Below are positions 1,278-15,072 of a DNA stretch of 30,309 nt, one piece after another; position 1 is the stretch's first letter; every line of letters begins with the position of its first letter. The position numbers were made by a program, and so were the translations under genes. The notes beneath the pieces are model-generated. The model searched no databases. It was not told the DNA's origin and worked only from the letters and a program-made list of their open reading frames with translations. This stretch comes from a virus, in the IMG/VR virus record IMGVR_UViG_3300025896_000132, positions 1 to 30,309 of that record; one strand, given 5' to 3'.

Positions 1278-1353
1278 ATTGTATAAATCCTATTATGATC
1301 CAGTAAAGTATTGTATAGAAAGTAGTTGCAATAAAGATGTATTTAAGGGTGAA

Positions 1354-1694: not shown

Positions 1695-1695
1695 A

Positions 1696-1878
1696 CTAAT
1701 TTTCTTTTTTTAGTTGATTATTTATCTCGGCCACTATCTCATCAACAGATAGATTTTCTAGTGTGCATGAGAAGCCATTCTTGAAATATATGTTAGAGTT
1801 GCCTTCAGCGTATGGTTCCGGACGAATGGAAACAATCTCATCAGATTCTACCCAAATAGAAAAAACCTTAATCAGCAT
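1696..1878 (-). CDS. Small hypothetical protein (60 residues)
   Basis: Sixty residues, soluble, with an alternating strand pattern: MLIKVFSIW, then IVSIRPEP, then NIYFKNGFSCTLEN, ending in a helix VDEIVAEINNQL. The layout is loosely like FlbD-type small beta proteins, but this is pattern similarity only and the function is unknown. AGGAG lies about nine bases upstream of the ATG and supports this start. It overlaps the end of the upstream gene by 11 bases and is followed one base after its stop by the next gene, so it sits inside a coupled set. Confidence 0.6.
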   Translation of the reverse strand: MLIKVFSIWVESDEIVSIRPEPYAEGNSNIYFKNGFSCTLENLSVDEIVAEINNQLKKEN

Positions 1879-2197: not shown

Positions 2198-2462
2198 CGC
2201 TATTCTCCTGGAGTTTGGCTTCAAAATGCTTATATATAGCCTCTTTCAGCCACTCCTTATGCTCTTTATCGCCATGTTTAATCGCATCATAAAGAGTGTC
2301 TATCTGCTCTTTCATAACTAAACAATAACTGTATGTATCAAGCAAATCGGAGGCTAATTCTTTTTTAGTGCGCCCCTCTAAAAGATAAACGCCATCATAA
2401 TGCGCACCAATCTTGCATACTATTTTATTAGGCAACTTCGTCACATTTGTAGGGTTAGTCAT
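2187..2462 (-). CDS. Phage protein of unknown function with the AIxHGDxxHxxWL motif
   Basis: 91 residues from the ATG at 2462, which has GGAG eight bases upstream. The C-terminal half reads LYDAIKHGDKEHKEWLKEAI, a motif that recurs in small early proteins of many phages (A-I-x-H-G-D-x-x-H-x-x-W-L), always without a known function. The N-terminal half is beta-like (KIVCKIGAHYDGVYLLEG). The ATG overlaps the stop of the upstream gene by eight bases. A longer start at 2519 would read into the upstream gene and lacks a ribosome site, so I reject it. Confidence 0.65.
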   Translation of the reverse strand: MTNPTNVTKLPNKIVCKIGAHYDGVYLLEGRTKKELASDLLDTYSYCLVMKEQIDTLYDAIKHGDKEHKEWLKEAIYKHFEAKLQENSDAN

Positions 2463-2805
2463 TTTGTTTTCTCCATGATTGATAATCATAACTTTCTTCT
2501 TGTATATAATTGCCCTCACTTATTTGCATAGTTGCACAGATAATCTGCAAAACAGTTTGCATTTCTTTATGTAGTTTTCTGCAAACATCTCGACCACCTT
2601 TGGGAAAATGCTTTTCCCCATCATCATCTTCAAGCATTTCTAAACCTATAATCTCTGCGATATCTTCTTCTACAGAACTATTGCCATAAGGGCGCTTGCA
2701 ATCAACGCTTGGAGCGCCATACTCACAATCTTCCCAATGAATATTAAATTGATGCAATAGCTTCAGGTGGTTTGCAGTTATAGTAAATGTGTTTTCCCTA
2801 CTCAT
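2455..2805 (-). CDS. Conserved phage protein with the WEDCEYGAPxxDxKRPYGNS motif
   Basis: 116 residues. The stretch from about residue 10 to 55 (LKLLHQFNIHWEDCEYGAP, then KRPYGNSSVEEDIAEIIG) is a well-conserved block of a widespread phage early-region family. The conserved W, D, C, E, the GAP turn and the KRPYGNS segment are all present. The C-terminal part is helical (KLHKEMQTVLQIICATMQI). Function is unknown in the family; it is typically a short gene in clusters like this one. The start is an ATG at 2805 just after a 9-codon mini-frame. It is likely cytoplasmic. Confidence 0.7.
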   Translation of the reverse strand: MSRENTFTITANHLKLLHQFNIHWEDCEYGAPSVDCKRPYGNSSVEEDIAEIIGLEMLEDDDGEKHFPKGGRDVCRKLHKEMQTVLQIICATMQISEGNYIQEESYDYQSWRKQND

Positions 2806-2847
2806 GCGCGGTGTCCTTTTTGTTCATATTAATATTTGCTTTGGTTA

Positions 2848-3003
2848 TTATTTTCCATCAGTCCAGTCATTTCTCTCTTGTACGCAGTATTGACATATTA
2901 AATTATATTCAAAATCCTCGAACAATCCCTCATTTTCCTTACATCTGCCACAGGCTTGTTTTGATTCTTCTATCTGTAAGGCTAAGTCATTTACTTTACC
3001 CAT
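2848..3003 (-). CDS. Small zinc-ribbon-like protein with two CxxC pairs
   Basis: Fifty-one residues (MGKVNDLALQIEESKQ...). Cysteine pairs CGRC (18-21) and CQYC (37-40) are 15 residues apart, the spacing expected of a small zinc ribbon. The first helix and the acidic linker suggest a protein-protein or nucleic-acid adaptor rather than an enzyme. GGGAGG lies about seven bases upstream of the ATG and is a strong ribosome site. The ATG overlaps the last eight bases of the upstream gene. Zinc binding is inferred from the cysteines; the target is unknown. Confidence 0.6.
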   Translation of the reverse strand: MGKVNDLALQIEESKQACGRCKENEGLFEDFEYNLICQYCVQERNDWTDGK

Positions 3004-3190
3004 GATATTCCTCCCATCGCTTTTTAGGTTTCTGGCTTACTTCTACAATGCGCAAGCCTTGCTTTTCGTAACCAGATACATCCCAATCCAAATTATTAGG
3101 ATATGCATAAAGAGCGATAATTTCTTTTGCACCATCTGAATAAGTTTTTTCCGCAAGTATTCTATGAGTTCCTTTGCTATATGTAGACAT
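2996..3190 (-). CDS. Small hypothetical protein (64 residues)
   Basis: 64 residues from the ATG at 3190, which has AGGAGA upstream. An in-frame GTG one codon earlier is a less likely start. The sequence is a plain alpha/beta mixture (RILAEKTYSDGAKEIIALYAYP) ending in a basic tail. It has no membrane segment, signal peptide or cysteine motif. I do not recognise a family. It overlaps the following zinc-ribbon gene by eight bases, so the two are probably made together. Confidence 0.5.
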   Translation of the reverse strand: MSTYSKGTHRILAEKTYSDGAKEIIALYAYPNNLDWDVSGYEKQGLRIVEVSQKPKKRWEEYHG

Positions 3191-3216
3191 CACCCTTCTC
3201 CTATCGTTTTTTTTGT

Positions 3217-3363
3217 TTAAAATCCTACTCTAACCCTTGTTTCTAATTCTTTTAATCTTTGTTCTATCTCAATAATTGCTTGAGCTAATACCATTTCTTG
3301 TTGACTTAATATTCCGCCATTAATCGGCTTCAGAAACTCTTTTAATGTAGTAATGGATGACAT
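3217..3363 (-). CDS. Small helical hypothetical protein (48 residues)
   Basis: 48 residues (MSSITTLKEFLKPINGGILS...). After a short N-terminal segment the protein is one amphipathic helix (QQEMVLAQAIIEIEQRLKELETRV) that looks like a coiled coil, so it may oligomerise or bind a partner. GGGAG lies about 10 bases upstream of the ATG. The start lies four bases past the stop of the previous gene. Function is unknown. Confidence 0.5.
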   Translation of the reverse strand: MSSITTLKEFLKPINGGILSQQEMVLAQAIIEIEQRLKELETRVRVGF

Positions 3364-3367
3364 ACCC

Positions 3368-3544
3368 CTACTCTCCCGGTTTGTTTTCTATTAATAATTG
3401 TGGTGCATTCTTGTATGATACATCAACCCACTCACAGTCACCCGCAAGATGTGACGGTATACTAGAGGGATAGCAAAACCATTGTTGCAGTATAGCTTTA
3501 CCAAACCTACCTTTACGCACTCTATATTTATTGTAATGGGGCAT
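3368..3544 (-). CDS. Small hypothetical protein (58 residues)
   Basis: 58 residues starting MPHYNKYRVRKGRFGKAILQ, with a basic N-terminus and a Trp/Cys-containing middle (QQWFCYPSSIPSHLAGDCEWVDVSYKNAP). AAGGAG stands eight bases before the ATG. The pattern of a strand with aromatic residues and a C-terminal W-x-D-V resembles small phage early proteins, but I cannot name a family. It ends four bases before the next start. Confidence 0.5.
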   Translation of the reverse strand: MPHYNKYRVRKGRFGKAILQQWFCYPSSIPSHLAGDCEWVDVSYKNAPQLLIENKPGE

Positions 3545-3573
3545 CCCACATTCTCCTTAGTTATTATTCTGTT

Positions 3574-3723
3574 TTACTCCCTTACATATTTTAGACTATA
3601 CCCATTATCCACAAACCACTTCAATCCACCCTTAAAGCGTACCAGTTTGTCTATTTCCGCAGCATACATTGCCCTCTTATTCACCCTAGTATTTTTATAG
3701 TATATACAGTATTTATTGTTCAT
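3574..3723 (-). CDS. Small basic hypothetical protein (49 residues)
   Basis: 49 residues, strongly basic and aromatic (MNNKYCIYYKNTRVNKRAMY...). GGAG in the tail of the upstream gene serves as ribosome site, and the start is joined to that gene's stop as TAATG, so translation is coupled. The charge would allow nucleic-acid binding, but no motif shows it. Function unknown. Confidence 0.5.
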   Translation of the reverse strand: MNNKYCIYYKNTRVNKRAMYAAEIDKLVRFKGGLKWFVDNGYSLKYVRE

Positions 3724-4082
3724 TACATTTCTCCCTTTCCTGTTACAGTTCCACTACTTCCAGCAAGTGTATAAAGCTTTTCCTCGTCACGGAATTCAGC
3801 CTTTTTCTTTACCCGCCTAAATGACACACCCTCTTCCAAGTATGCATCTAAGGTAATTTTACCCTGAGAAAATACCTCACCATTAGAGTCCGCCCCCTCT
3901 GATCCGGGGTTATAGTATTTGCAAGAATGAGTTGTTTTAGGATATGATAACATACTTAAACAAACATGCTCAGGCCGGCCATTGTAAGGTGCAATAGTTA
4001 CGCATAACTCATAATCCATAAATGCCTCCATATCATCACCACGCTTTCTTGCAGCTTCTAATATTTCCCTAATTGTTGTCAT
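3723..4082 (-). CDS. Hypothetical early phage protein (119 residues)
   Basis: The ATG at 4082 (MTTIREILEAARKRGDDMEA) is preferred over the longer reading from 4166 because AAGGAG lies upstream of it and the extra N-terminal codons overlap a membrane protein gene. An N-terminal helix is followed by a beta-rich domain (YELCVTIAPYNGRPEHVCLSML, then GKITLDAYLEEG) and a polar tail. It overlaps the end of the upstream two-helix membrane protein by 14 bases. No family recognised. Confidence 0.55.
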   Translation of the reverse strand: MTTIREILEAARKRGDDMEAFMDYELCVTIAPYNGRPEHVCLSMLSYPKTTHSCKYYNPGSEGADSNGEVFSQGKITLDAYLEEGVSFRRVKKKAEFRDEEKLYTLAGSSGTVTGKGEM

Positions 4083-4266
4083 TATTCTTCTCCTTCCCTT
4101 TAATAAAATCCCGAATATTCTCCAGCACCCCTTTATATAACAACACACCATAAAATATCCCAACAACTACAGTAGCTACAAGCCACGCTATCTCTGCATG
4201 TATAATAATCCCCCATATACCTAAGCCCAGCGCTACCATTATAAGTATTGTTATTATGTGTGCCAT
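4069..4266 (-). CDS. Small membrane protein with two transmembrane helices
   Basis: 65 residues from the ATG at 4266, joined to the previous stop as TAATG. Two hydrophobic segments (about 3-21 and 26-43) are separated by a short HAEIA turn, and the tail (ENIRDFIKGKEKNNDNN) is charged and probably cytoplasmic. The topology would suit a holin-like or membrane-modifying protein, yet it is the second gene of an early-type leftward cluster with no endolysin nearby, so I do not call it a holin. Other possibilities are a superinfection-exclusion or host-membrane protein. Confidence 0.55.
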   Translation of the reverse strand: MAHIITILIMVALGLGIWGIIIHAEIAWLVATVVVGIFYGVLLYKGVLENIRDFIKGKEKNNDNN

Positions 4267-4451
4267 TATCGATCTATAGCATGCCTGCATACATCCTCAG
4301 AATGACCACCACTCATACATACAGATATAGCCTGCTTATTCATTCCCCCAACTATTGCACAGCATAATACTATCAGGCATAGTAAGAAACCTATTAGAAG
4401 TATGTTGGATAGTCCTATCTCCCGTATTATAGCTTTTATTCGTTGCATCAT
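4266..4451 (-). CDS. Small single-pass membrane protein with a C-x9-C tail
   Basis: 61 residues from the first of two adjacent ATGs (MMQRIKAIIR). A basic N-terminus, one transmembrane helix (about 15-36) and a short tail with Cys45 and Cys55 in the pattern C-M-S-G-G-H-S-E-D-V-C-R. Tails like this (C-x3-G-H-S-x-x-x-C) occur in many tiny phage membrane proteins of unknown function and would lie outside the cytoplasm if the basic end stays in. It is the first gene after the leftward promoter at 4477-4505. A longer start at 4505 would lie upstream of the predicted transcript start. Confidence 0.55.
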   Translation of the reverse strand: MMQRIKAIIREIGLSNILLIGFLLCLIVLCCAIVGGMNKQAISVCMSGGHSEDVCRHAIDR

Positions 4452-4476
4452 TATCCCTTTTTGGTTTAATAAGTGG

Positions 4477-4505
4477 GTTATATCATATGGTGTTTTGCGT
4501 GTCAA
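4477..4505 (-). promoter_or_regulatory. Strong sigma70-type promoter of the leftward gene cluster
   Basis: Read leftward, TTGACA (4505-4500) is followed by a 17-base spacer and TATAAC (4482-4477): a perfect -35 and a 5/6 match at -10. Transcription would begin near 4470, about 20 bases before the first ATG of the cluster at 4451, with AAGGGA as ribosome site between them. The -35 box directly abuts a copy of AATAGTTC (4513-4506 in this orientation), which suggests regulation by whatever binds that repeat. Confidence 0.75.
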
Positions 4506-4643
4506 GAACTATTTATTAAATTAATGGAGATTTATTGGATTGTTAGTTTAAGTATCAATAGTTCGAACCCTTCCAATAGTTCGAAAGAACTCAAGCGCAA
4601 GGAATGGCGCGGCGTTCAAGCAATAGTTCTAATCCATATTTCT

Positions 4644-4659
4644 CCCCCCCACCCCTCCC
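4644..4659 (-). other. G-quadruplex-capable tract, minus strand
   Basis: The plus strand reads C7-A-C4-T-C3. On the minus strand this is GGG, GGGG and GGGGGGG separated by single bases; with the long run split it supplies four G3 tracts with one-base loops. It sits inside the AATAGTTC array. Confidence 0.45.
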
Positions 4660-4818
4660 GGCGGTGTGCGAGTATGTTTGAATTATTAGAATTATTGTAA
4701 TAAATAATATATAAATATATATATATAATAATAACTTATACTACTTTTCTCTACTACCCCAAGTTGCAATAGTTCTTATTTTATACCCCAATAGTTCGAG
4801 ATAGTTCTAACTTTTCTT

Positions 4819-4841
4819 TGTAACAAAAATATCACGTTACA
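4819..4841. promoter_or_regulatory. Dyad TGTAAC-N11-GTTACA, possible operator
   Basis: TGTAAC (4819-4824) and GTTACA (4836-4841) form a perfect six-base inverted repeat with an 11-base spacer, so the half-site centres are about 17 bases apart, as expected for a dimeric helix-turn-helix repressor contacting successive turns of one face. It lies just right of the last two tightly spaced AATAGTTC copies. Confidence 0.4.
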
Positions 4842-5090
4842 TTTAGGCAACAAAATGACCGTTTTTCAGAACTGCAAAATATTTTAACCTATTAGTTGAG
4901 AAACTATAATAGTTATGCATAAATCAATAAAGGTAAATAGGGCGAAATAATTAACTAAATATTAATAAGTGTGAAACATTTGTGGATGAGGATAAGGGTG
5001 GAAATGTGATTAGGTATTTAGCTAAATGGCTAATTAATCTAGGGTTGTATGTAGTGTTGTATGGGTACTAGAAGTTGTAGAGTGTTATGA

Positions 5091-5118
5091 GGGGGTAGGG
5101 GGGTGATTGGGGGGTGGG
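5091..5118 (+). other. G-quadruplex-capable tract, plus strand
   Basis: Runs G5 (5091-5095), G6 (5098-5103), G6 (5109-5114) and G3 (5116-5118), with loops of 2, 5 and 1 bases, satisfy the usual G3+N1-7 pattern. It lies about 70 bases before the probable small-terminase gene. Confidence 0.5.
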
Positions 5119-5150
5119 TTTTGTGGAAGAGGTAAAGCCTATATTTCCAT

Positions 5151-5179
5151 TTGCATTTTTTTCTAATTTTCATTATTAT
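5151..5179 (+). promoter_or_regulatory. Promoter that would give a leaderless small-terminase transcript
   Basis: TTGCAT (5151-5156), a 17-base spacer and TATTAT (5174-5179). The -10 box ends six bases before the ATG at 5186, so transcription would start at or next to that ATG. There is no Shine-Dalgarno sequence before it. The same geometry occurs at 13878-13913. Confidence 0.45.
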
Positions 5180-5185
5180 TGTGAC

Positions 5186-5518
5186 ATGACAAACATATCG
5201 GAAGAATTAGACTGGATACTGTATAAATTAAATCATACGGAGGATAAGTATTTGCTTGAGCAGGTAGTTGACAGTGCGAAGAGTTATTCAGCGAGTGATG
5301 TGCATGAATGGGGTAGGAAGGAGGAGTATCGGGGTAGGTATGAGAAGATACGGGATTTGATAAAGGTGCGTATATTTGATGCGGTAGAGAGGAATGTATT
5401 GGACAGGGCTTTAGCTGGGGAGATATTAAAGACATATTATTACAAGCCGTTTAGTGCTGGGGAGGATGAGGGTGTTGGGGTAATGGGAAGGAAGGAATTG
5501 GTTGTGAGGTTTGTGTGA
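5186..5518 (+). CDS. Probable terminase small subunit
   Basis: 110 residues from the ATG at 5186 (MTNISEELDWILYK). The protein is helical, with a segment SYSASDVHEWGRKEEYRGRYEKIRDLIK resembling the helix-turn-helix part of small terminases, followed by helices ending in LAGEILKTYYYKPFSAGEDE, the position where many small terminases carry a short helix before an acidic tail. Small terminases recognise the phage packaging site and deliver DNA to the large subunit. Position upstream of the large terminase, separated by two tiny genes, fits. An upstream GTG at 5114 would add a hydrophobic, unconvincing N-terminus. The call rests on layout and context, not on a sharp motif. Confidence 0.5.
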   Translation: MTNISEELDWILYKLNHTEDKYLLEQVVDSAKSYSASDVHEWGRKEEYRGRYEKIRDLIKVRIFDAVERNVLDRALAGEILKTYYYKPFSAGEDEGVGVMGRKELVVRFV

Positions 5519-5709
5519 TAAAAACATATGATTATATAGATGACAAAGGCAGAAAGCGTATAGGTCTTTTATTGGAAAGGGATGGTGGTAGGTTGAAGGC
5601 TTGTGTGCCGTCTTTGGATTTTGAGGGTGATGAGTTAGCTGGTGAATTTAAGATGTCTGTGGGGAAGAAAAACCATGTAATATTGAGGGTGGTAGATGAC
5701 AACAATTGA
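5515..5709 (+). CDS. Small hypothetical protein between terminase genes
   Basis: 64 residues beginning at a GTG (read as Met) that overlaps the previous stop in GTGA, so it is probably translationally coupled. The sequence is beta-rich (YDYIDDKGRKRIGLLLERDGG, later NHVILRVVDDNN), like a small beta-barrel. No cysteine motif or membrane segment. It overlaps the next gene by 14 bases. Function unknown. Confidence 0.5.
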   Translation: MIKTYDYIDDKGRKRIGLLLERDGGRLKACVPSLDFEGDELAGEFKMSVGKKNHVILRVVDDNN

Positions 5710-5902
5710 ACGCAGGTGGGAAATAGAAAAAACTATGCATAGGCTTTCTAAATTATTCTGGACTGAGCCAGCTAGATTAGAGTGTAATGGTAAAGCGTGG
5801 AGTTGCAATTGGCTTTGTAATTGGGCGGGGGATTTAAAGGCGAAAGAGTTATATTTTAAGTTATCTGATTTTTCAAGAAAGAGATATGGAAGAAGCTTAT
5901 AG
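5696..5902 (+). CDS. Small Trp/Cys-containing hypothetical protein
   Basis: 68 residues (MTTIERRWEIEKTMHRLSKL...). It carries four tryptophans and three cysteines in a short middle segment (LECNGKAWSCNWLCNWAGD), then a helix and a basic C-terminus. The three cysteines do not form a clear metal-binding pattern. It overlaps both neighbours (14 and 17 bases), so it lies inside the terminase unit. Function unknown. Confidence 0.5.
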   Translation: MTTIERRWEIEKTMHRLSKLFWTEPARLECNGKAWSCNWLCNWAGDLKAKELYFKLSDFSRKRYGRSL

Positions 5903-7235
5903 TGAAATCCTGATACCCTCGGTCTTCAAGGATTTATTTCTTGCATACAGGTATAAAGTATATTGGGGGGGTCGTGGTGGAGGTAAATCTAGGGCTTATG
6001 CAACTGCATTGATAATACTTTCTGCGACAGAGAAATTGAGGGTGTTGTGTGCGAGGGAGTTGCAGGTATCGATAAATGATTCTGTGCATAAATTGTTATG
6101 TGATGAGATATCGAGATTGGGACTGGATGAGTATTTTCATATAACAAATACAAGTATCAGGGCGATTGATACGGGTTCTGAGTTTTTATTTAAGGGTTTA
6201 AAGCACAATGCGAGTGAGATAAAGTCCTTGGAGGGGGTGGACAAGGTATGGGTAGAGGAGGCGGAGAAGGTGTCGGATTCGAGCTGGGAGACTTTGATAC
6301 CGACGATAAGGAAGCCGGGTTCTGAGATATGGATAAGTTTCAATTTAAAGAATGTGACTGATGCGACATATCGGAGATTTGTGCTGACGGAGAGGGATGA
6401 TGCGGTGGTGCGGAAGGTGAGTTGGAGGGACAATCCATTTTTTCCTGATGTGCTGGATAAGGAAAGGCGGGTATTGGAGAAAGAGGATTATGAGGCATAT
6501 TTGCACGTATGGGAAGGGGAGCCGGATTTAAGGCATTCGGGTGCGGTGTATGCGAAATGGATGACGAAGTTGTATGAGGGGGATAGAATAAATGGGCGGG
6601 TGATGTGGGATCCGGGCTTTCCTGTTTATACGTGCTGGGATCTGGGTTATGACGATTCGACTGCAGTATGGTTTTACCAGTTGGGGTATGGGGAGATAAT
6701 GGTGATAGATTATTATGAGAGTAATGGTCAGGGGGTTGGGCATTATTGTGATATATTGAAGGGTAAGGATTACACATATGCATTACATTTTGTTCCTCAT
6801 GATGCGGCAAATAAAATAATGGCGGCGGGGGGTCGTAGTATAATAGAGCAGGCATGGAAGGACCACGGGGTTAAGATGACGGTTGTGCCTGCAACGAGTC
6901 AGCAGAATAGTATAGAGGCATTGAGAAAGACATTGCCGAGGTGCTGGTTTAATAAAGAGAAATGTGGGGATGGTCTGGATGCATTGATGCAGTATGCTTT
7001 CCAGTATGATGAAAAAATGGAAACATTTAAGTCGACACCAAAACACGACTGGTCTTCTCATGCGTGTGATTCCTTGGAATTAATGGGGCGGATGTGGCAG
7101 GAGCAGGTATTGACCAAAGAAGAAATTGTGCGGAGAGAGGTGGAAAAAAAATTCTTTAAGACGCGAAGGGAGCATAATGTTGATGGGGGGAAGGATCCTT
7201 ATGTAATACAGGGGTGGAAGAGGAAGAAGAAATGA
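5886..7235 (+). CDS. terL: Terminase large subunit (PBSX-type), packaging ATPase-nuclease
   Basis: 449 residues, the usual length for this family. It pumps DNA into the procapsid through the portal and cuts the concatemer. The N-terminal ATPase has a Walker A GGRGGGKS (28-35), Walker B VWVEEAE (121-127) and a coupling motif near SFNLKN (151-156). The C-terminal RNase H-like nuclease has its acidic residues in WDLGYDDST (Asp252), PHDA (Asp306) and HACDSLELM (Asp395). A basic tail ends the protein. The ATG at 5886 overlaps the previous gene. Codon use here favours AGG/CGG arginine and ATA isoleucine with very G-rich coding strand, unlike the capsid and tail genes further right. Confidence 0.95.
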   Translation: MEEAYSEILIPSVFKDLFLAYRYKVYWGGRGGGKSRAYATALIILSATEKLRVLCARELQVSINDSVHKLLCDEISRLGLDEYFHITNTSIRAIDTGSEFLFKGLKHNASEIKSLEGVDKVWVEEAEKVSDSSWETLIPTIRKPGSEIWISFNLKNVTDATYRRFVLTERDDAVVRKVSWRDNPFFPDVLDKERRVLEKEDYEAYLHVWEGEPDLRHSGAVYAKWMTKLYEGDRINGRVMWDPGFPVYTCWDLGYDDSTAVWFYQLGYGEIMVIDYYESNGQGVGHYCDILKGKDYTYALHFVPHDAANKIMAAGGRSIIEQAWKDHGVKMTVVPATSQQNSIEALRKTLPRCWFNKEKCGDGLDALMQYAFQYDEKMETFKSTPKHDWSSHACDSLELMGRMWQEQVLTKEEIVRREVEKKFFKTRREHNVDGGKDPYVIQGWKRKKK

Positions 7236-7354
7236 AGGGTAAATGTATAGTATGCGGGGGAGAAATGATATGGCGGAGAAAGAGCCGGAAAACATGCTCG
7301 GACAGATGCAGAAAAATATTGAGCAGGATGCGGAAAGGGGGTGGGAATGGGTGA
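7232..7354 (+). CDS. Tiny zinc-finger-like protein (40 residues)
   Basis: Forty residues (MKGKCIVCGGEMIWRRKSRK...). CIVC (5-8) and CSDRC (22-26) form a C-x2-C / C-x3-C zinc site with a basic linker, a pattern seen in tiny phage proteins of the CxxCG...CSxxCR type. The ATG overlaps the large terminase stop as ATGA, so translation is coupled. It overlaps the next gene by 14 bases (8 from the preferred ATG). It could bind DNA or a packaging partner; the family has no settled function. Confidence 0.6.
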   Translation: MKGKCIVCGGEMIWRRKSRKTCSDRCRKILSRMRKGGGNG

Positions 7355-8081
7355 TGTGGTAATATGGCGCACGGGTCATGGTATAAGCGACTCTGTTTCC
7401 ACACTTCTTGCAAACATACTTAAGGCTGAGGTGCGGCATGTGCGTGATCGTATGAACCGGAGTGAAATAAATATTGCATATGGCATATTGCGCGGTTCGG
7501 GGGATGTGTTCAGAAAATCGGGACACTGGTTTGAGATAGATAAAGGATATTGGGGTGCCGCGCATTATGATGGGAATTACAGGATTAGTTACAGGAATAC
7601 GCAGGGGGTGTATGATGACGTGTGGGGCGAGAAAGAATGCGGGGTGAAATTAGAGGGGTGGAAAAGTGGGGGAAGTATAGTTCTGATATGTCCTCCGACA
7701 GAACATGTCTGCAGGTTTTTTGGAATAGATATGATTACATGGATAAAGGATGCGGTTGGGAAGTGTGAAGGGAAAGATTATGTTATAAGGATGAAAGAAG
7801 ATACTTGGAAAATAAATTGGGACAGGATACGCGGCATTATAACTTTTAATTCAACTTTAGGTGTTGAAGCTTTAAGGCGTGGCATTCCTGTAATATCAGA
7901 TGAAGAAAACAGCATGATCGGAAGTTACTATAAACAGAAATGCGTTGACTACACTTTAGAGAATGTTACAAAGGTTGAGAGGATGCCTCTTTTTAATTGC
8001 ATGAATAGTCATCAATTTAAATTAGAGGAAGCGAGTAAGGAAAAACTGTGGGAAATAATTCGGCACTACACATCTTTATAG
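7347..8081 (+). CDS. Sugar-transferase-like protein (capsule-synthesis type), first gene of the glycan cassette
   Basis: 244 residues from the ATG at 7347; a GTG at 7341 is equally possible. N-terminal part: ISDSVSTLLANIL, then YGILRGSGDVFRKSGHWFEIDKGYWG and HYDGNYRISYRNTQG, a block I recognise from phage and prophage proteins found beside glycosyltransferases. C-terminal part: a GT-B-like end with ITFNSTLGVEALRRGIPVIS, the nucleotide-sugar-side motif of capsule and surface-glycan transferases (N-S-x-x-G-x-E-A-x-x-x-G-x-P-V). The donor and acceptor are unknown. It overlaps the following gene by 34 bases. Confidence 0.6.
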   Translation: MGDVVIWRTGHGISDSVSTLLANILKAEVRHVRDRMNRSEINIAYGILRGSGDVFRKSGHWFEIDKGYWGAAHYDGNYRISYRNTQGVYDDVWGEKECGVKLEGWKSGGSIVLICPPTEHVCRFFGIDMITWIKDAVGKCEGKDYVIRMKEDTWKINWDRIRGIITFNSTLGVEALRRGIPVISDEENSMIGSYYKQKCVDYTLENVTKVERMPLFNCMNSHQFKLEEASKEKLWEIIRHYTSL

Positions 8082-8854
8082 GTCACGACAGCAGGGAGGC
8101 TGTAGCAACTGAGGTTGCAGCATACAGTATCCGCAAAAGAACAAAATCTCCAACAGATATAAAGTTTTTAAAACACCGGGAATTACGCCGTGCTGGCTTA
8201 TTTAAAAGACCATGGCTTATTGATTCTGAAACAGGTGACTTTAAGGACCTTATTGACAACCGCCCCTTCAGTACAGAGTTTTCACATACAAGATTTCTTG
8301 TTCCTGCATTAATGCAATATAAGGGCTGGGCGTTATTCTGTGATGCGGATATGCTGTTTCAGGTGGATGTCATGGAGATATTCAGGCATGCAAGGAACAA
8401 GTATGCTGTAATGGTTGTAAAGCACAATCAGGTTGTAAAAGAGAATAAAGAAAAAATGGACGGAAGGCTCCAACAGAATTACTTCCGTAAAAACTGGAGC
8501 AGTTTTATTTTATGGAACTGTGAGCACCCTGCGAATAAAAAATTGAGTAAAGAGTTTGTCAATATGGCGCAGGGTTCGGAATTGCATTCTTTCTCATGGC
8601 TCAAAGAACATGAGATAGGTGCGTTGCCAAATACTTATAATTATATAAGTGGCGTATCTCCTGTGCTTCCAGTGGAGAATATGGGGCGGCCTGATGTGGT
8701 GCATTATACCGAGGGTGGCCCTTGGTTTAAGGATTACAGGAATTGTCCTTATGGCGATTTATGGCTGGAGGAATATGAGGATTTCCAGTTGCACCGGGAA
8801 GATTATTTTATAAGTGAAATGCCAACTATTATATATGAGAAAGGAGAGCTGTGA
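8048..8854 (+). CDS. GT-A glycosyltransferase with a DAD motif (family 8-like)
   Basis: 268 residues from a GTG start at 8048, supported by AAGGAAAA about eight bases upstream. The N-terminus IFIGHDSREAVATEVAAYSI and the metal-binding CDADMLF (Asp99, Asp101) are typical of GT-A transferases related to family 8, which move a sugar from a nucleotide donor in an Mn-dependent reaction. A further block reads SSFILWNCEHPANKKLSKEF and VVHYTEGGPWFKDY, as in LPS-type glycosyltransferases. No signal peptide or membrane segment, so it acts in the cytoplasm. Start overlaps the previous gene; stop overlaps the next GTG as GTGA. Acceptor unknown. Confidence 0.75.
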   Translation: MGNNSALHIFIGHDSREAVATEVAAYSIRKRTKSPTDIKFLKHRELRRAGLFKRPWLIDSETGDFKDLIDNRPFSTEFSHTRFLVPALMQYKGWALFCDADMLFQVDVMEIFRHARNKYAVMVVKHNQVVKENKEKMDGRLQQNYFRKNWSSFILWNCEHPANKKLSKEFVNMAQGSELHSFSWLKEHEIGALPNTYNYISGVSPVLPVENMGRPDVVHYTEGGPWFKDYRNCPYGDLWLEEYEDFQLHREDYFISEMPTIIYEKGEL

Positions 8855-9549
8855 TAACATTAATATGTCCGACAAAAAACCGTCCTGATTTATGCAAACG
8901 TATGGTTGAGAGTGCTTATGCAACCGCAGATGGGAAAATTGGTATCATATTAGGTATTGCGGAACCAAGTATTTATTATGCAGATTACGAAAATATAAAA
9001 GGGCCTGATAAAATACCTGCAGGGGCACTACCTACTGTTGCAACTATAAACCTTATTGCAAAAAGATTAATAGAGGAGGGCACAACCACATTATTTTTTG
9101 TCGTTGGTGATGATGCGGTATTTAAAACTAAAGGCTGGGATACGGCACTATTAAAGGCTTATAGTGAGCTGGAGAACAAGATACACGTATTTGGCTTGCA
9201 GGATTCAAGGGATAAAGAGGGCACGCCACATCCGATTGCAACAAAGGAATTTATACAGGCAATGGGGTATCTGCTTGTTCCTATATTTAACCATTGGTAT
9301 GCAGATACTTGGTTATCGGATCTGACAAAGGCAAATAATTGTTTTACCTATTTGCGGGATTATGTTCTGGAGCATAAAAAGCCAAGTGATGAAGGTGTTT
9401 TTGACAGCACGTATAAGGATTTGCGAGGTTCCGGCACTATGGAAAGAGATAAATTCGTAAGTGAAGCGTGTGCACATTTTTTAGGTATAGAAAAGGGACG
9501 ATTAAGGGATGCTCGTACAAATAGATTGCTAACTGGCTGGAGGAGTTAA
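8851..9549 (+). CDS. Family 2-like glycosyltransferase
   Basis: 232 residues from a GTG with AAGGAG six to seven bases upstream. It begins MITLICPTKNRPDLCKRMVE, the first strand and helix of GT2-type transferases (the CPTxxRP pattern), and has the metal-site motif VGDDAVF (85-91), where most family members have a D-x-D. The later half (DRDKFVSEACAHFLGIEKGR-like region near the end) is less conserved. The reaction is presumed to be nucleotide-sugar dependent glycosyl transfer in the cytoplasm. Linked to its neighbours by stop/start overlaps (GTGA before, TAATG after), so stoichiometric expression with the other cassette genes is likely. Confidence 0.7.
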   Translation: MITLICPTKNRPDLCKRMVESAYATADGKIGIILGIAEPSIYYADYENIKGPDKIPAGALPTVATINLIAKRLIEEGTTTLFFVVGDDAVFKTKGWDTALLKAYSELENKIHVFGLQDSRDKEGTPHPIATKEFIQAMGYLLVPIFNHWYADTWLSDLTKANNCFTYLRDYVLEHKKPSDEGVFDSTYKDLRGSGTMERDKFVSEACAHFLGIEKGRLRDARTNRLLTGWRS

Positions 9550-9854
9550 TGTTTAAATTCAGGGATTGGGGTTGGTGGTTAGTATTGTGGAAGGGAAAAC
9601 ATTTTAAATTAAAATTAATCTACTTTAAAAAAAATAAAAAATTATCATATCAGCGTCATGAGTACAGATATGAGTTATGGTTATTTTTGATGGGTGCAGG
9701 GAACATGCGTAATGCGGGAACATTGCAGCGAGGCGATTTTGCAATGATAGAAAAGAATGCATGGCATCAATTTATTGCTGGCAACAGGACTCTGGTTCTG
9801 GAGGTGCAATTTGGGGAAAAATGTAACGAAGAAGATATTGAGAGGAAGGAATGA
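9549..9854 (+). CDS. Cupin of the mannose-6-phosphate isomerase type II family, stand-alone
   Basis: 101 residues, just one cupin. The order W-G-W-W-x-V-L, K-x-x-K-L-I-Y, the block SYQRHEYRYELW and the closing LEVQFGEKCNEEDIER all match the C-terminal domain of bifunctional ManC/AlgA-type enzymes, where it interconverts mannose- and fructose-6-phosphate. The usual S-L-Q-x-H-x-H-R-x-E-H-W has become S-Y-Q-R-H-E-Y-R-Y-E-L-W, so His37, Glu42 and His73 remain but one metal-binding histidine is replaced by Tyr39. Activity may therefore be altered; it could be a related sugar-nucleotide isomerase/epimerase-like cupin. AGGAG precedes the ATG. Confidence 0.75.
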   Translation: MFKFRDWGWWLVLWKGKHFKLKLIYFKKNKKLSYQRHEYRYELWLFLMGAGNMRNAGTLQRGDFAMIEKNAWHQFIAGNRTLVLEVQFGEKCNEEDIERKE

Positions 9855-10030
9855 AAACAAATATAGAGCCAATATGTTGGTGGACTGATAAAGAAAGAGA
9901 AATTTGTGAGAATAATCTTGTTATTAGTGAAGTAAAAACTAATTGGCGCGGCAAAAAGTATCGAGTGTATACCTCAAAAGCGTTGCATAATATTTATAGA
10001 GAAGATTTTACTTGGAGAGAATATGAATAA
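9851..10030 (+). CDS. Small hypothetical protein in the glycan cassette
   Basis: 59 residues (MKTNIEPICWWTDKEREICE...). Soluble and polar with a basic middle (TNWRGKKYRVYTSKALHNIY). The start overlaps the cupin stop as ATGA and the end overlaps the next gene by eight bases, so it is a true member of the coupled set by position. No family recognised. Confidence 0.5.
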   Translation: MKTNIEPICWWTDKEREICENNLVISEVKTNWRGKKYRVYTSKALHNIYREDFTWREYE

Positions 10031-11726
10031 CAGTATAGCAGCAGTAACGACTTTTCCAAATTCTGCATGGGAAGTATATGGGAAAGCGATGTTACAGTCG
10101 TATGTAAAGTTCTGGCCAGCAAATATACCTTTGCTTGTGCAACTAGATAATGATCTGCTTTTTCCTGATGTAGACAGAATATTAAGGCCGCAGGATGGTA
10201 TTGCAGTTGGACAGAATATGGATCATAAAAATTTTATTGAACGCAATCAGGGTAAGGACGATGTTCAGAATTATCGTAAGCAGCCTGTACGATTCTGCCA
10301 TAAAGTATTTGCATTAAAAAGAGCTTTGGATGCGGCTTTAAAGCAGAAAGAACATGAGCCTGCGCCGCGTTATTTAATATGGGTTGATGCAGATGTTATT
10401 ACGACTGCAACGCCTGATAACATAATTGATTGCTTACCTAAAGAGGGTGATGCGGTTTCATATCTGGGGCGTAAGGATTGGGATCATTCTGAGTGTGGTT
10501 GGCTTGCTTTTGACCTTGAAAATGGTGGCCGGGAAATAATAGAGGCGATGCATAAGGTTTATGATGATGATATAGTTCTGACTATGGAACAGCAGCATGA
10601 TTCTTATGTTTTTGACCAGATAAGAGTGCCTTATAAATGCACTAATCTTACCGAGAATCAGCCGGGAATGGATATCTGGCAGTATTCCCCAATGCATAAA
10701 TGGTCTGTGCATCATAAGGGCCCTGTTGCAAAGAATAAATTATTGAGTGCGAATGGTGGAATGATTGAGCAGCCTATAATACCTGTTCCGGGTCAGAATT
10801 TTGTAATCCAGACTAAAAATGCAATACCTTCAGAGGAAATCAGGGCGCATATTGAAGAAAACCAGAAATTAATTAAAAAATGGGTTAAGGGTTGCAGGAA
10901 AACACGTGAGAAAATAGTCGTAGTTTCAGCTGGCCCCTTGCTTATAGCTGAAGATGTTCGGGCTGAGGTGAAAAAAGGGCGTAAAATAGTGGCTGTAAAA
11001 CATGCTTTGGAACCACTTAAAAAGGCCGGAATAAAGCCTTGGGCTTGTATTTTGCTTGATCCACGTCCACATGTAGCTAATTTTGTTCAGGATGCAGATA
11101 AAGATATTATCTGGCTGGTTGCGTCACAGGTTAATCCAGAAATAACAAAAAAATTGCTTGAAAAAGGTTGTGAAATATGGGGCTATCATGCAGCAGTTGG
11201 GGCTGACGAACATGATCTTACTTCAAAACAGCCTGATTCTGTGATAAGTGGTGGTAGTGCAACTGCGACACGCGGTTTATATTTATTGAAGCATTTGGGC
11301 TTTAGTGATTTTAATCTTTATGGTTATGATCTTTCTCTTCCGGATAAGCCCGACCTTAACGCAAGGGATGAGTTTGGGAATCCTAAATATATGGAATTTA
11401 GTTTTTCGATAAAGGACGGCGTGGTAAATATAAAAAGGTGTTTTTATAGTGAGCCGCAATTAATGGCACAGTTTGAAGAATTACAGGATATAATACGGAC
11501 TGAAAAGATGAAATTGAAGGCTTTTGGCGATGGCCTTGTACCTTTTGCTCTGAGATATATGCAGTTGTCAAATTTGCGAAAAAGTGAATTAGCGTGTAAT
11601 ATAAAGAAAACAAATTATAAAAGGTTGTTCGGATGGAAGAGGAGCAAAGGAATCAGGCTATTTCAGGCTTGGCACAGGATATACAGGAAAATCCACCAGA
11701 AACTGAAGGTGAGCATCAGGTTGTAG
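10023..11726 (+). CDS. Fusion of a DAD-type glycosyltransferase and a DUF115/Maf-like sugar transferase domain
   Basis: 567 residues. Residues ~1-250 are a GT-A-type domain: ITTFPN-like start (AAVTTFPNSAWEVYGKAML), the metal motif WVDADVIT (120-127) and an acceptor-side block WDHSECGWLAFDLENGG. Residues ~296-480 match DUF115 (MptE/Maf-like): VVVSAGPLL (299-307), a middle PWACILLDPRP and CEIWGYH, then SGGSATATRGLYLLKHLGFSDFNLYGYDLS. In flagellin glycosylation, Maf proteins of this superfamily transfer sialic- or pseudaminic-type sugars; others are pterin kinases, so function is inferred. The last ~30 residues overlap the portal gene by 94 bases and are basic (RIYRKIHQKLK), which looks like read-through past an older stop. 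GGAGAG precedes the ATG. Confidence 0.75.
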   Translation: MNNSIAAVTTFPNSAWEVYGKAMLQSYVKFWPANIPLLVQLDNDLLFPDVDRILRPQDGIAVGQNMDHKNFIERNQGKDDVQNYRKQPVRFCHKVFALKRALDAALKQKEHEPAPRYLIWVDADVITTATPDNIIDCLPKEGDAVSYLGRKDWDHSECGWLAFDLENGGREIIEAMHKVYDDDIVLTMEQQHDSYVFDQIRVPYKCTNLTENQPGMDIWQYSPMHKWSVHHKGPVAKNKLLSANGGMIEQPIIPVPGQNFVIQTKNAIPSEEIRAHIEENQKLIKKWVKGCRKTREKIVVVSAGPLLIAEDVRAEVKKGRKIVAVKHALEPLKKAGIKPWACILLDPRPHVANFVQDADKDIIWLVASQVNPEITKKLLEKGCEIWGYHAAVGADEHDLTSKQPDSVISGGSATATRGLYLLKHLGFSDFNLYGYDLSLPDKPDLNARDEFGNPKYMEFSFSIKDGVVNIKRCFYSEPQLMAQFEELQDIIRTEKMKLKAFGDGLVPFALRYMQLSNLRKSELACNIKKTNYKRLFGWKRSKGIRLFQAWHRIYRKIHQKLKVSIRL

Positions 11727-13858
11727 AGGGCCTTGCTCAGGCTGAATTAACTGGAAGGATAAAAAATTCTTCTGAAGTATATAATATGGCTCAAGACCTT
11801 GATGAGGAATTGCTTACAGAGCTTGGCAAGGAAGTTTTTGAAGGATTCAAGATAGATTGCGAAAGCCGCTCTGAATGGCTTATGATTCATGCATTCTGGT
11901 TATCTCTTTACATGCAACAGGATTACGCTGAGACTCAGGATGAGGAGCGCGATTGGGGCGCTACTGAATCTGTTCCTATACTTACTGAATCATGCGATCA
12001 GTTCCAAGCCCGAACTTTTAAAATATTCTTTCCTAATGATACATTTGTATCGGCCGTTCCTATGCAAAGAACTGTTGAGGCGCGAGAAATTCTTGAGGCT
12101 CGTGCTGACAGGATAGGAAAGCACATGAGTTATCAGCTGGGCTATCAGGACAGAAATTATAAGCTGGATAAGAATGCATTGTTTTTAGGTGTTGCAGTAC
12201 ACGGTTCTTTCTTTACCAAGACTTATTTCGATCAACAGAAAAGGCGCTTTAAGGTTGATAACGTTCGTCCTACCGATCTTGTTATAAACTATTCTGTAGG
12301 CCCTGTTAGAATAGAGGATGTGCGCAGAAAAACGCATATAATATATACTACTGTTGGAGAAACAGAAGATCTTGCGGCTCAGGATTATTTGTTAGAGCCA
12401 GCGAAAGAGGGAAGTATTACTATAGATGAAAAGTATAACACTAAGGTGGACCAATCTCAGGGAATTGCATCTCCAGATGGCGGTAGATTAAAACGTGAAG
12501 CTCCTGCAGTATTATTAGAGCAGCATAATTACTTTGATATAGGTGATGGTAATTATCATCCTTATATTGCAACTATCTGCGCAGTAAGTCAGAAAATATT
12601 AAGGTTTACTATTGGTTATGAGGCTGATGAAAAAGGCAAGCCGCTAAATAATTATGAGCAGATACAATATTTTACACATTACAAGTTCAAAGAGAATCCT
12701 GATGGTTTTTATGGACTTGGTTTGGGGCATGCAATAGGTGATCTGAATAGTGGCGTTAATATAATGTTGCGCCAGTCAATTGATGCCGCAACTCTTGCGA
12801 ATGACGGTAACATGTCAGGCTTTATAAGTGAGAGACTAGGGCTTGAAGGTGACGAAATCCGTCTTACTCTGGGCAAATTTAATAAAATTCCTGACTCTGT
12901 GGGAGATTTGCAACAGAGTGTGATGATGATGAAATTCCCGGGTCCTAATGTTGCGCAGATTCAGCTTATGGAAGCAATGGATGAACGTGCGCAACGCATG
13001 GGTTCAGTTACTGAGGCTGTAACGGGTGGTTCAGATAAAGTTGAGCAGCCTACAACTTACCTTGCAAAAATAGAGCAGTCTCTGGAGCAATTTTCTTCAA
13101 CCCAGCTACTATTGGCACATTCTTTAACTGATGAACTGAATAAAATTTACAGAATCAATCAAAGGTTCCTGCCTTTCCATACTTATTTTACAGTAAATGG
13201 TGTTCCGGAAACTATTACACGCGATGATTACAAAAGTGACATGCTGATCCAGCCTATCTTTGATCCTAAGTATGCAACGCAAGGGCAAAAAGTTGCAAGG
13301 GCACAAGCTGAATTGAATGCTACTTTGCAAAACCCTGTAAATGAGGGGAGGCCGCAAGTAATTGATGAAGCTTTCAGGCGGTATATGAAAGCTCTGGATG
13401 TTGAAGATATTGATGCCTTAATACCTCCTCAACCTCAAATAGAGAATTTTGATGATCAGATTTTAGAAAATATGTGGTTCTTGATGCCAAAAGAAGCGCG
13501 CCCTTTATTTGATGTGTTTCCGGATCAGAATCATGCTATACATCTTGCAATACTGAATCAGTTTCTTGCTCAATACAGTCAGGTATTACAACCCGATCAG
13601 CAGGAAGATGTGTTAAAACATATGCAAAAACACCAAGGATATTTATATGGACAAGAAAATGGACTCCTCCCGCCAAGTCAGGCCGGACAACAGCCAACTC
13701 CGCCACTTGCTGCACGACAAGACAATGCAATGGGTGCTGGGACAACTACGCCAGACTTATCGCAAGCCGAGAGCGAGTTGCTTGGAGAAATCATGGGAGG
13801 AGCAGCACCGGATAGCGGGGCAGCAGCAGGTTCTGGAGCACCTTCACAGGTTGCTTGA
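11633..13858 (+). CDS. Portal protein (head-tail connector)
   Basis: 741 residues, in the range of large podoviral portals. The portal is a dodecameric ring at the capsid vertex that docks the terminase and the tail. Recognised from the block LTESCDQFQARTFKIFFPND, the later YFTHYKFKENPDGFYGLGLGHAIGDLN (a portal signature, with G-x-G-x-G and the preceding hydrophobic strand) and the helical stem region with NSGVNIMLRQSIDAATLANDG. The C-terminal ~60 residues are low-complexity Gln/Pro/Ala. ATG at 11633 is chosen because it gives a natural acidic N-terminus (MEEEQRNQAISGL), but its ribosome site is weak, and a later ATG is possible; either way it overlaps the preceding gene. Confidence 0.85.
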   Translation: MEEEQRNQAISGLAQDIQENPPETEGEHQVVEGLAQAELTGRIKNSSEVYNMAQDLDEELLTELGKEVFEGFKIDCESRSEWLMIHAFWLSLYMQQDYAETQDEERDWGATESVPILTESCDQFQARTFKIFFPNDTFVSAVPMQRTVEAREILEARADRIGKHMSYQLGYQDRNYKLDKNALFLGVAVHGSFFTKTYFDQQKRRFKVDNVRPTDLVINYSVGPVRIEDVRRKTHIIYTTVGETEDLAAQDYLLEPAKEGSITIDEKYNTKVDQSQGIASPDGGRLKREAPAVLLEQHNYFDIGDGNYHPYIATICAVSQKILRFTIGYEADEKGKPLNNYEQIQYFTHYKFKENPDGFYGLGLGHAIGDLNSGVNIMLRQSIDAATLANDGNMSGFISERLGLEGDEIRLTLGKFNKIPDSVGDLQQSVMMMKFPGPNVAQIQLMEAMDERAQRMGSVTEAVTGGSDKVEQPTTYLAKIEQSLEQFSSTQLLLAHSLTDELNKIYRINQRFLPFHTYFTVNGVPETITRDDYKSDMLIQPIFDPKYATQGQKVARAQAELNATLQNPVNEGRPQVIDEAFRRYMKALDVEDIDALIPPQPQIENFDDQILENMWFLMPKEARPLFDVFPDQNHAIHLAILNQFLAQYSQVLQPDQQEDVLKHMQKHQGYLYGQENGLLPPSQAGQQPTPPLAARQDNAMGAGTTTPDLSQAESELLGEIMGGAAPDSGAAAGSGAPSQVA

Positions 13859-13912: not shown

Positions 13913-14731
13913 ATGGGAATTTCACGCACACTTAGAAGAATTACACATGCAGTTGTTCATCCTATTCAGGAGGCAACTGATTGGATACCGGGTAGTCAGT
14001 ATATTTTACCAGCTGCTTTAGCGGCAATACCGGGTGTTGGCCCGGCGCTTTCAGGAGCTTATCTTGGTGCGTCAAATTACGACAAAACCGGATCATTTGG
14101 AAAAAGTCTTGCATCTGGTCTTGTTGCATATGGCGGTGCTAAATATGGTGGAAACGCGCTCAAGAAAACATTTGGTGATTTTGGTACTATAGGTAGCAAT
14201 ATTGGTAGAGCCGCTAATGCAATTGGTGGTGCGGGTAGTTCTACCTCAATTGGCGCATCTCTTGGGAATGCATTAAGTTCTGTTGGCGGGAGTGCAGGAG
14301 CGGGTAGTTTTGCTTCCAATCTTCTTTCAACTCCGATAACTTCTTTGGCTGGCAATGCCATTGCAACTAATCTTGCATCTTCTTTAGGAGGCGGTAGTGC
14401 GCCAGATGCTCCGAGTGGCCCCGCACCATTTGTTGCAAGTAGGCAGGCGCAAAAAGAGCTTCCTTCAAGTCTTTCTGGATTTGGATCACTGGATCAGAAT
14501 CAGCAGGCGAGTAATATTGCAACTCAAGGTGTTTATGGCGCAGGTTTGGGTCCACAGGAGAACCAATATTTTTTAAATCTTATTAATAGAAGACTTGTGG
14601 ATGATAGTGGTCAGGTAGGTGATGTAAATTCAGTGAATCCAATTGAAAGTTCTTATTTAGGTCAGTTGGGACTTGGTGGATATAATAATTCTAATAATTT
14701 ATTGGAGGCAATAAGTAGATGGCAGGGTTAA
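13913..14731 (+). CDS. Gly/Ala/Ser-rich virion protein, possibly internal or ejection protein
   Basis: 272 residues. A short basic N-terminus (MGISRTLRRITHAVVHPI) precedes a hydrophobic segment ILPAALAAIPGVGPALSGAYLGA (about 31-53), then a long region of small residues (GGAGSSTSIGASLGNAL, repeated Gly-Ser-Ala), and a polar C-terminus with asparagine and tyrosine (YNNSNNLLEAIS). This composition is typical of phage proteins packaged inside the head and injected with DNA; a virion assembly role is the alternative. It directly follows the portal and precedes the co-chaperonin, which it overlaps by 13 bases. Function is inferred from position and composition only. Confidence 0.6.
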   Translation: MGISRTLRRITHAVVHPIQEATDWIPGSQYILPAALAAIPGVGPALSGAYLGASNYDKTGSFGKSLASGLVAYGGAKYGGNALKKTFGDFGTIGSNIGRAANAIGGAGSSTSIGASLGNALSSVGGSAGAGSFASNLLSTPITSLAGNAIATNLASSLGGGSAPDAPSGPAPFVASRQAQKELPSSLSGFGSLDQNQQASNIATQGVYGAGLGPQENQYFLNLINRRLVDDSGQVGDVNSVNPIESSYLGQLGLGGYNNSNNLLEAISRWQG

Positions 14732-15072
14732 GTGGTGTGTGCTACCAACCGAAATTTGGTAGAGTGTTGATTGAGCGTGTAGTAGAAGAAAAATCAAAAG
14801 GTGGTGTAATAATTCCAAATGCAAAAAGACATGCATCATGTCAGGGTAAGATAATTGCATTAGGTGAAACTGCTGGTTGGACAGATACTTTCGATTCAGA
14901 GGGTGAACCCCAAGTTGTAAGAGTATTTAAAATTGGTGATGAGGTGATGTTTGGCCGTCATACGGGTGCTTGGCTTGATGCTACTTATACCAATGGTGAG
15001 CAAAATGATGATGGAAAATTATTTATTTGCCAAGATGCAGATATTTTATGTGTAATTAACAAAGGAGAGTAA
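14719..15072 (+). CDS. Phage-encoded GroES-like co-chaperonin
   Basis: 117 residues, slightly longer than bacterial GroES. It matches the family from end to end: the first strand FGRVLIERV, the mobile-loop region EEKSKGGVIIP (24-33), which contacts GroEL, the turn QGKIIALGE, the core KIGDEVMFGR (71-80), and the closing strand DADILCVI (106-113). About 25 residues between the loop and the core (WTDTFDSEGEPQ) and near the end (NGEQNDDG) are inserts relative to bacterial proteins. Like T4 gp31 it would cap host GroEL to fold the capsid protein. It sits directly before the scaffold and capsid genes, as that job would predict. ATG overlaps the upstream gene by 13 bases. Confidence 0.85.
   Translation: MAGLSGVCYQPKFGRVLIERVVEEKSKGGVIIPNAKRHASCQGKIIALGETAGWTDTFDSEGEPQVVRVFKIGDEVMFGRHTGAWLDATYTNGEQNDDGKLFICQDADILCVINKGE

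What the first reader, a model, noticed from the sequence alone, without database searches (positions are those of the whole stretch)
7347..11726. Glycosyltransferase cassette inserted between large terminase and portal
Six coupled genes, four of them sugar-transferase-like (7347, 8048, 8851, 10023), one a ManC-type cupin and one unknown, stand where most phages have terminase directly followed by portal. All are in the late transcript by position. Established: phages can carry glycosyltransferases that modify DNA or host O-antigen. Inferred: with late expression and no membrane segments, the products may decorate virion proteins or a sugar-nucleotide pool rather than act as an O-antigen conversion set, which usually has membrane flippases and GtrB-type anchors. 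This is the best candidate for an undescribed system in the window.
Basis: partly seen in the sequence, partly recalled or inferred. Interest (0 to 1): 0.8.

Follow-up and report, generated by a model that had tools for sequence, protein, structure and literature searches.

The report
Phage sugar-transfer cassette beside portal
A set of sugar-transferring enzyme genes sits inside the head-building operon of this uncultured phage and has been kept in the same place, always ending against the portal gene, in a whole group of related phages, which suggests that these viruses put sugars on their own particles with an enzyme related to the one bacteria use on their flagella.

Summary
Between the large terminase (5886-7235) and portal (11633-13858) lie a KpsC/WbbB-like GT-B protein (A), a GT8-like transferase (B), a GT-A-like transferase (C), a ManC-type cupin, a 59-aa unknown, and F: a GT8-like domain fused to a Maf_flag10/MptE (PF01973) domain, the domain of Maf flagellin glycosyltransferases. 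The cassette is not a scatter of morons. All 23 distinct full-length F genes with readable downstream DNA have portal within three genes. All 15 with readable upstream DNA have B. F-bearing portals form one side of one branch of the portal tree. In the window's own clade F overlaps portal by 58-109 nt. Most relatives also carry an epimerase, a cytidylyltransferase and a methyltransferase that the window lacks. Membrane proteins, GtrA and thymidylate-synthase-type base-modifying genes are missing, and F is under purifying selection. Best explanation (about 0.55): a lipid-free, cytoplasmic O-glycosylation system for virion proteins. The acceptor and the sugar are unknown. Modification of host surface glycan is the main rival. 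Virion glycosylation is already known in mycobacteriophages. The Maf-type enzyme, its fixed place at portal and its absence in full-length form from 50,697 GenBank phage records make this a new variant.

The parts
5886..7235 (+). large terminase (TerL), upstream boundary
   Evidence: PF04466 E 7.7e-43, phrog_3717 E 1.4e-60
7232..7354 (+). small zinc-ribbon-like ORF (40 aa) coupled to the TerL stop; a short ORF of variable kind lies here in several relatives
   Evidence: sequence and neighbour comparison
7347..8081 (+). A: short GT-B-type glycosyltransferase related to KpsC/WbbB Kdo transferases
   Evidence: AlphaFold model pLDDT 93.3; Foldseek KpsC 8fux E 4.4e-6, WbbB, KrkA, prob about 1.00 but TM about 0.4; homologues in relatives
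8048..8854 (+). B: GT8-like GT-A transferase with invariant DAD motif
   Evidence: PF01501 E 1.9e-4, just under cut-off; phrog_28018 E 6.9e-59; alignment A8
8851..9549 (+). C: GT-A-like transferase with conserved DD motif
   Evidence: phrog_14945 glycosyltransferase E 1.5e-22; alignment A9
9549..9854 (+). cupin resembling the C-terminal domain of ManC / type II mannose-6-phosphate isomerase; no guanylyltransferase domain
   Evidence: PF01050 E 1.7e-12; metal-ligand-type Q/H/E/H residues conserved; PDB cupin hits
9851..10030 (+). 59-aa ORF of unknown function, in the place where relatives carry a methyltransferase
10023..11726 (+). F: GT8-like domain (about 1-245, DAD at 122-124) fused to a Maf_flag10/MptE-like domain (279-440)
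   Evidence: PF01973 E 1.4e-17; FlagModPseD E 0.0011; Foldseek Maf 5mu5 E 9.8e-7, glycogenin/GlyE, archaeal MptE 8sd5
11633..11726 (+). 94-nt overlap of the F and portal reading frames; 58-109 nt in the window's own clade
11633..13858 (+). portal, downstream boundary
   Evidence: phrog_1216 E 7.9e-13; relatives 26-72% identical

Best explanation
The cassette is a virion-protein glycosylation module. B and F are its core. F's Maf-type domain would put a first sugar on Ser/Thr of a virion protein in the cytoplasm, as Maf does on flagellin before export. F's GT8-like domain, B, C and A would extend or branch the glycan. The cupin, and in relatives the epimerase (SDR), the HldE/TagD-like nucleotidyltransferase and the methyltransferase, would make or trim the activated sugar; the window, lacking the last three, would draw on host sugar nucleotides. 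Because F and portal overlap, the modifying enzyme is made together with the head proteins. Shown: gene content, synteny, fold relationships, conserved catalytic motifs, purifying selection. Inferred: activity, acceptor, donor, timing, benefit (perhaps shielding or adsorption).
For: F's C-domain is PF01973, matches Maf 5mu5 by fold and weakly the flagellin-modification model FlagModPseD. Maf's central domain is Maf_flag10 (pfam01973) and Maf enzymes O-glycosylate Ser/Thr of flagellin (PMC11339370). Distinct full-length F genes from the F-based scan: 23/23 with downstream sequence have portal within three genes, 15/15 with upstream have B. The portal-based scan, which did not use F, found F on all ten contigs of the close clade with upstream sequence. 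TerL is confirmed upstream in seven divergent loci. The portal tree needs one change for F presence (27 vs 12 rows, 0 of 500 shuffles as low). dN/dS medians: F 0.106, B 0.085, portal 0.076. Catalytic DAD/DD motifs are invariant. Only 3 of 158 cassette ORFs in 20 loci have a hydrophobic stretch. In another phage group F is a fusion GT8-like + Methyltransf_24 + PF01973, joining activities that are separate genes in the window clade. In cultured Caulobacter phage CcrColossus a PF01973-like gene (gp126; below Pfam cut-off) directly follows a tail gene and lies three genes from a B homologue.
Against: No glycan, mass shift or activity has been shown. B, A and the GT8-like half of F also occur away from structural genes: in marine myovirus-like contigs beside nrd genes and in Alphaproteobacteria MAGs. 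In one phage group B-F lies between ribonucleotide reductase and terminase small subunit, not at portal. A resembles lipid-linked glycan Kdo transferases, which fits surface polysaccharide as well. PF01973 also covers archaeal MptE, a pterin enzyme. Adjacency to portal does not identify the acceptor. The F model has moderate confidence (pLDDT 70, pTM 0.46).
Confidence: 0.55

Rival explanations
1. Host surface-glycan modification: the enzymes act on cytoplasmic LPS or capsule precursors late in infection, to stop superinfection or to keep progeny from sticking to debris.
For: A's nearest solved folds are KpsC, WbbB and KrkA Kdo transferases of capsule/LPS; the cassette resembles an LPS sugar cluster (SDR, HldE/TagD-like nucleotidyltransferase, FkbM or other methyltransferases); related genes occur in sugar clusters of other phages outside structural operons.
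Against: No GtrA in 14 long relatives; almost no membrane proteins in the cassettes; fixed position between TerL and portal with F overlapping portal in the window clade; Maf-type domain.
Confidence: 0.22
2. Sugar-nucleotide or small-molecule metabolism (auxiliary metabolism), with PF01973 acting as a pterin diphosphokinase-like enzyme.
For: Pfam and UniProt label the domain MptE-like; archaeal HPPK 8sd5 is among the fold matches; the cupin resembles a sugar-phosphate isomerase domain.
Against: F carries a GT8-like transferase domain and is always paired with B; the Maf structure matches better than 8sd5 (E 9.8e-7 vs 3.5e-5); no reason for such an enzyme to be kept at portal.
Confidence: 0.08
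3. Glycosylation of modified bases in phage DNA, as in T4-like phages.
For: Phage glycosyltransferases are known to act on DNA (cited in PMC12619734).
Against: No thymidylate-synthase-family gene (the family of known hydroxymethyl-pyrimidine synthases, from general knowledge) in 14 long relatives, mostly 43-52 kb; the cassette sits in the head operon, away from the replication gene seen at 1-1026.
Confidence: 0.05
4. Recent host-derived morons with no phage function.
For: Homologues of F's GT8-like half occur in Alphaproteobacteria MAGs; the phage family is variable between TerL and portal (PcfJ-like protein or other ORFs in some relatives).
Against: One-change distribution on the portal tree, purifying selection, GC and GC3 within the range of neighbouring structural genes, no promoter or terminator excess.
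Confidence: 0.03

Closest known systems
Maf flagellin O-glycosyltransferases (e.g. Magnetospirillum Maf, PDB 5mu5)
   Same: PF01973 Maf_flag10 domain; fold match with E 9.8e-7; soluble protein; plausible Ser/Thr protein acceptor
   Different: N-terminal part is GT8-like, not Maf's degenerate Rossmann domain; no flagellar genes nearby; partner gene is portal, not flagellin
Mycobacteriophage virion glycosylation (Che8, Corndog, Myrna)
   Same: phage-encoded glycosyltransferases that modify the phage's own virion proteins (reported in PMC12363180 and PMC12619734)
   Different: different host group; in the related phage Maravista the GT genes lie near the 3' end of the genome (PMC11256854); here a Maf-type enzyme at portal in uncultured podovirus-like phages; no glycan shown
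KpsC / WbbB / KrkA Kdo transferases
   Same: GT-B-type fold of protein A
   Different: A is shorter (244 aa), about 10% identical, TM about 0.4; no ABC export or lipid-anchor genes seen
O-antigen conversion gtr cassettes
   Same: phage-borne glycosyltransferases
   Different: GtrA absent from all 14 relatives searched and nearly no membrane proteins
Pam1/HTVC023P-like short-tailed phages (structural module)
   Same: order TerL, portal, GroES-like, MCP
   Different: these relatives have TerL beside portal or other inserts, none with F

Membership tests
Maf flagellin glycosyltransferase | Maf_flag10 (PF01973) domain | tested here: met
   E 1.4e-17, over the gathering score; Foldseek 5mu5 prob 1.00
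Maf flagellin glycosyltransferase | Maf three-domain architecture (N Rossmann-like, central Maf_flag10, C helical bundle) | tested here: not met
   N-terminal half matches GT8 enzymes instead; NCBIfam PseD model 17.6 bits vs cut-off 670
Maf flagellin glycosyltransferase | flagellin acceptor or flagellar gene context | tested here: not met
   neighbours are TerL and portal
Phage virion-glycosylation system (mycobacteriophage type) | covalent glycan on capsid or tail protein that depends on the phage glycosyltransferase | not testable with these tools
   needs virions and mass spectrometry
Phage virion-glycosylation system (mycobacteriophage type) | glycosyltransferase genes kept in phage genomes of the group | tested here: met
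O-antigen conversion (gtr) cassette | GtrA flippase / membrane glycosyltransferase | tested here: not met
   PF04138 in 0 of 14 relatives; no transmembrane stretch in the window cassette
T4-type DNA glucosylation | hydroxymethyl-pyrimidine synthase of the thymidylate-synthase family | tested here: not met
   PF00303 in 0 of 14 relatives, control genomes positive; the records may be incomplete
Kdo transferase (KpsC/WbbB family) for A | fold match to the family | tested here: met
   global TM only about 0.4
Kdo transferase (KpsC/WbbB family) for A | catalytic Asp and CMP-Kdo donor use | tested here: inconclusive
   an invariant Asp65 exists but its equivalence to KpsC D160 was not established; sequence match to WbbB only E 0.41
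ManC / type II PMI | guanylyltransferase plus isomerase cupin | tested here: not met
   only the cupin part is present (101 aa)

The most novel reading that the evidence does not exclude
A clade of uncultured environmental phages, apparently short-tailed, has fixed a Maf-type, lipid-free protein O-glycosylation pathway inside its head-assembly operon. F and portal are translationally coupled because the portal or another head protein is itself the glycosylated substrate, so that glycosylation is part of particle assembly rather than an accessory trait.
Probability: 0.25. Interest if true: 0.8.

Novelty: new variant of a known kind. Interest (0 to 1): 0.57.

Why it matters
Virion glycosylation in bacterial viruses has been documented for only a few phages, such as mycobacteriophages. 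Here a whole phage clade keeps a candidate system in a fixed spot beside portal, with an enzyme domain from a characterised cytoplasmic protein-glycosylation family. The question of how common glycosylated phage particles are becomes testable, including in cultured phages such as CcrColossus that carry a related gene set. Database labels of F relatives as MptE-like pterin kinases are probably misleading.

Tried and rejected
Profile searches of A, B, C and F against PDB sequences gave nothing significant, so folds were used instead. Metabolic MptE reading: kept only as a minor rival. DNA-modification and O-antigen-conversion readings: searched and not supported. Host-moron reading: contradicted by synteny and tree. 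I looked for SDR, nucleotidyltransferase and methyltransferase homologues elsewhere in the window and found none; they could lie outside this 30.3-kb fragment. Literature searches for DUF115 in phages and for glycosyltransferases at the terminase-portal junction found no description; the main mycobacteriophage paper was not held. Two family scans failed on a wrong frame; the PHROGs one was repeated, the Pfam one was not. A specific donor sugar (CMP-Kdo or another ulosonic acid, suggested by A and by Maf) was considered but not claimed.
Full report
Observation. The window is an IMG/VR virus fragment of 30,309 bases. Between TerL (5886-7235) and portal (11633-13858) lie six co-directional genes whose ends overlap or abut, plus one missed small zinc-ribbon-like ORF at 7232-7354. 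Downstream follow GroES-like (14719), MCP (17064) and tail genes, so the cassette is inside the head operon. Promoter-like and terminator-like sites are not above shuffle expectation. GC and GC3 of the cassette are within the range of neighbouring genes.

What the proteins are. A (7347-8081) has no confident sequence family; a 24-sequence alignment gave an AlphaFold model with pLDDT 93.3, whose best solved matches are KpsC, WbbB and KrkA Kdo transferases (E 4e-6 to 1e-3, TM about 0.4). B (8048-8854) is GT8-like (PF01501 E 1.9e-4, just below cut-off) and belongs to phrog_28018, with an invariant DAD motif. C (8851-9549) matches a phage glycosyltransferase PHROG at 1.5e-22. The cupin matches the C-terminal part of ManC (PF01050, 1.7e-12) without the guanylyltransferase part. 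F (10023-11726) has a GT8-like N-half and a PF01973 C-half (1.4e-17); its model (pLDDT 70) matches the flagellin glycosyltransferase Maf (5mu5, 9.8e-7), glycogenin/GlyE and archaeal MptE. PF01973 is the Maf_flag10 domain of Maf, which O-glycosylates flagellin Ser/Thr (PMC11339370).

Relatives. A portal-based scan found ten contigs (portal 56-72% identical) with sequence upstream of portal, and all carry F. The fuller cassette is TerL - A - B - C - SDR - nucleotidyltransferase - cupin - methyltransferase - F - portal; the window lacks the SDR, nucleotidyltransferase and methyltransferase. SDR and nucleotidyltransferase match broad sugar-nucleotide families (Epimerase 6.5e-40; rfaE_dom_II 1.1e-15) but no specific equivalog cut-off. 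An F-based scan gave 75 contigs. Among 24 distinct full-length F genes there, 23 of 23 with downstream sequence have portal within three genes and 15 of 15 with readable upstream have B. TerL was confirmed in seven divergent loci, whose best TerL PHROG differs from the window's. In the window's close clade F overlaps portal by 58-109 nt; in more distant groups the overlap is 4-26 nt or the genes are separated by up to about 0.5 kb.

Evolution. In related genomes TerL abuts portal (QDWS535, CRP-902, ct2os315, Pag-Yong1) or carries other inserts (HTVC023P, DSL-LC04, 023Pt_psg01). On a portal tree of 39 rows, F presence needs one change, with support 100/100 and none of 500 shuffles as low. Rooting is by midpoint, branches are long and F-positive rows were partly chosen by F, so this shows coherent inheritance, not direction. 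F, B and portal have low median dN/dS (0.106, 0.085, 0.076); the F and B sets include pairs from other phage groups, and the full-length F pairs printed give 0.08-0.16.

Other arrangements. A 758-785-aa F, directly preceded by B, occurs in another phage group; in L170 it lies between ribonucleotide reductase and terminase small subunit and is a fusion of GT, Methyltransf_24 and PF01973. In others the two halves of F are separate genes, next to portal (L064, L067, L151) or downstream of TerL and portal (L105). In cultured CcrColossus a PF01973-like gene (1.5e-7, slightly below cut-off) directly follows a tail gene and lies three genes from a B homologue. Full-length F was not found in 50,697 GenBank phage records with three different full-length queries plus a fused form and a split PF01973 domain; uncultured relatives exist in UniProt labelled MptE-like.

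Function. The soluble nature of the cassette, the Maf-type domain, the pairing of B and F, the optional sugar-nucleotide genes and the stable place at portal favour cytoplasmic glycosylation of virion proteins. Host-surface modification remains possible because A resembles Kdo transferases and because related genes occur outside structural operons in other phages. DNA glycosylation and gtr-type conversion are disfavoured. No activity or glycan has been shown; acceptor, donor and timing are inferred.

Novelty. Virion glycosylation is known from mycobacteriophages (PMC12363180, PMC12619734). What is new is the Maf-type enzyme fused to a GT8-like domain, its fixed place at portal and its clade-wide conservation. 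I found no paper describing it, within a library of open-licence papers only.

Noticed in passing
window 18005-18481 and 18489-18947: Two tandem ORFs after MCP are paralogues: both match the same single gene in relatives L002 and L003 at 42-46% identity. Probably a duplicated head-decoration/cement-type gene.
   Followed up: no
window 14719-15072: GroES-like co-chaperonin gene between portal and MCP, conserved in Pam1/HTVC023P-like relatives.
   Followed up: no
window about 1200-4900: Minus-strand run of small ORFs with strongly negative GC skew between a primase-like gene (1-1026) and the plus-strand late operon; a sharp skew switch near 4500-5000.
   Followed up: no
L202 (MW202713.1) 2165-7998: A Manatee Spring podovirus record has a gene annotated as TibC-type glycosyltransferase (no Pfam hit), an unannotated F N-domain homologue, a methyltransferase and a PLP enzyme just upstream of TerL and portal: another sugar set at the packaging genes.
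   Followed up: partly
L007 6322-8799; L009 4685-8787: Other phages of this family carry a PcfJ-like protein or two large unknown ORFs between TerL and portal, so the junction accepts insertions.
   Followed up: no
L204 (CcrColossus) 3623-8176: Glycosyltransferase set (PF01973-like, B homologue, GT9) directly after a tail gene and before the lysis genes of a cultured giant Caulobacter phage.
   Followed up: partly
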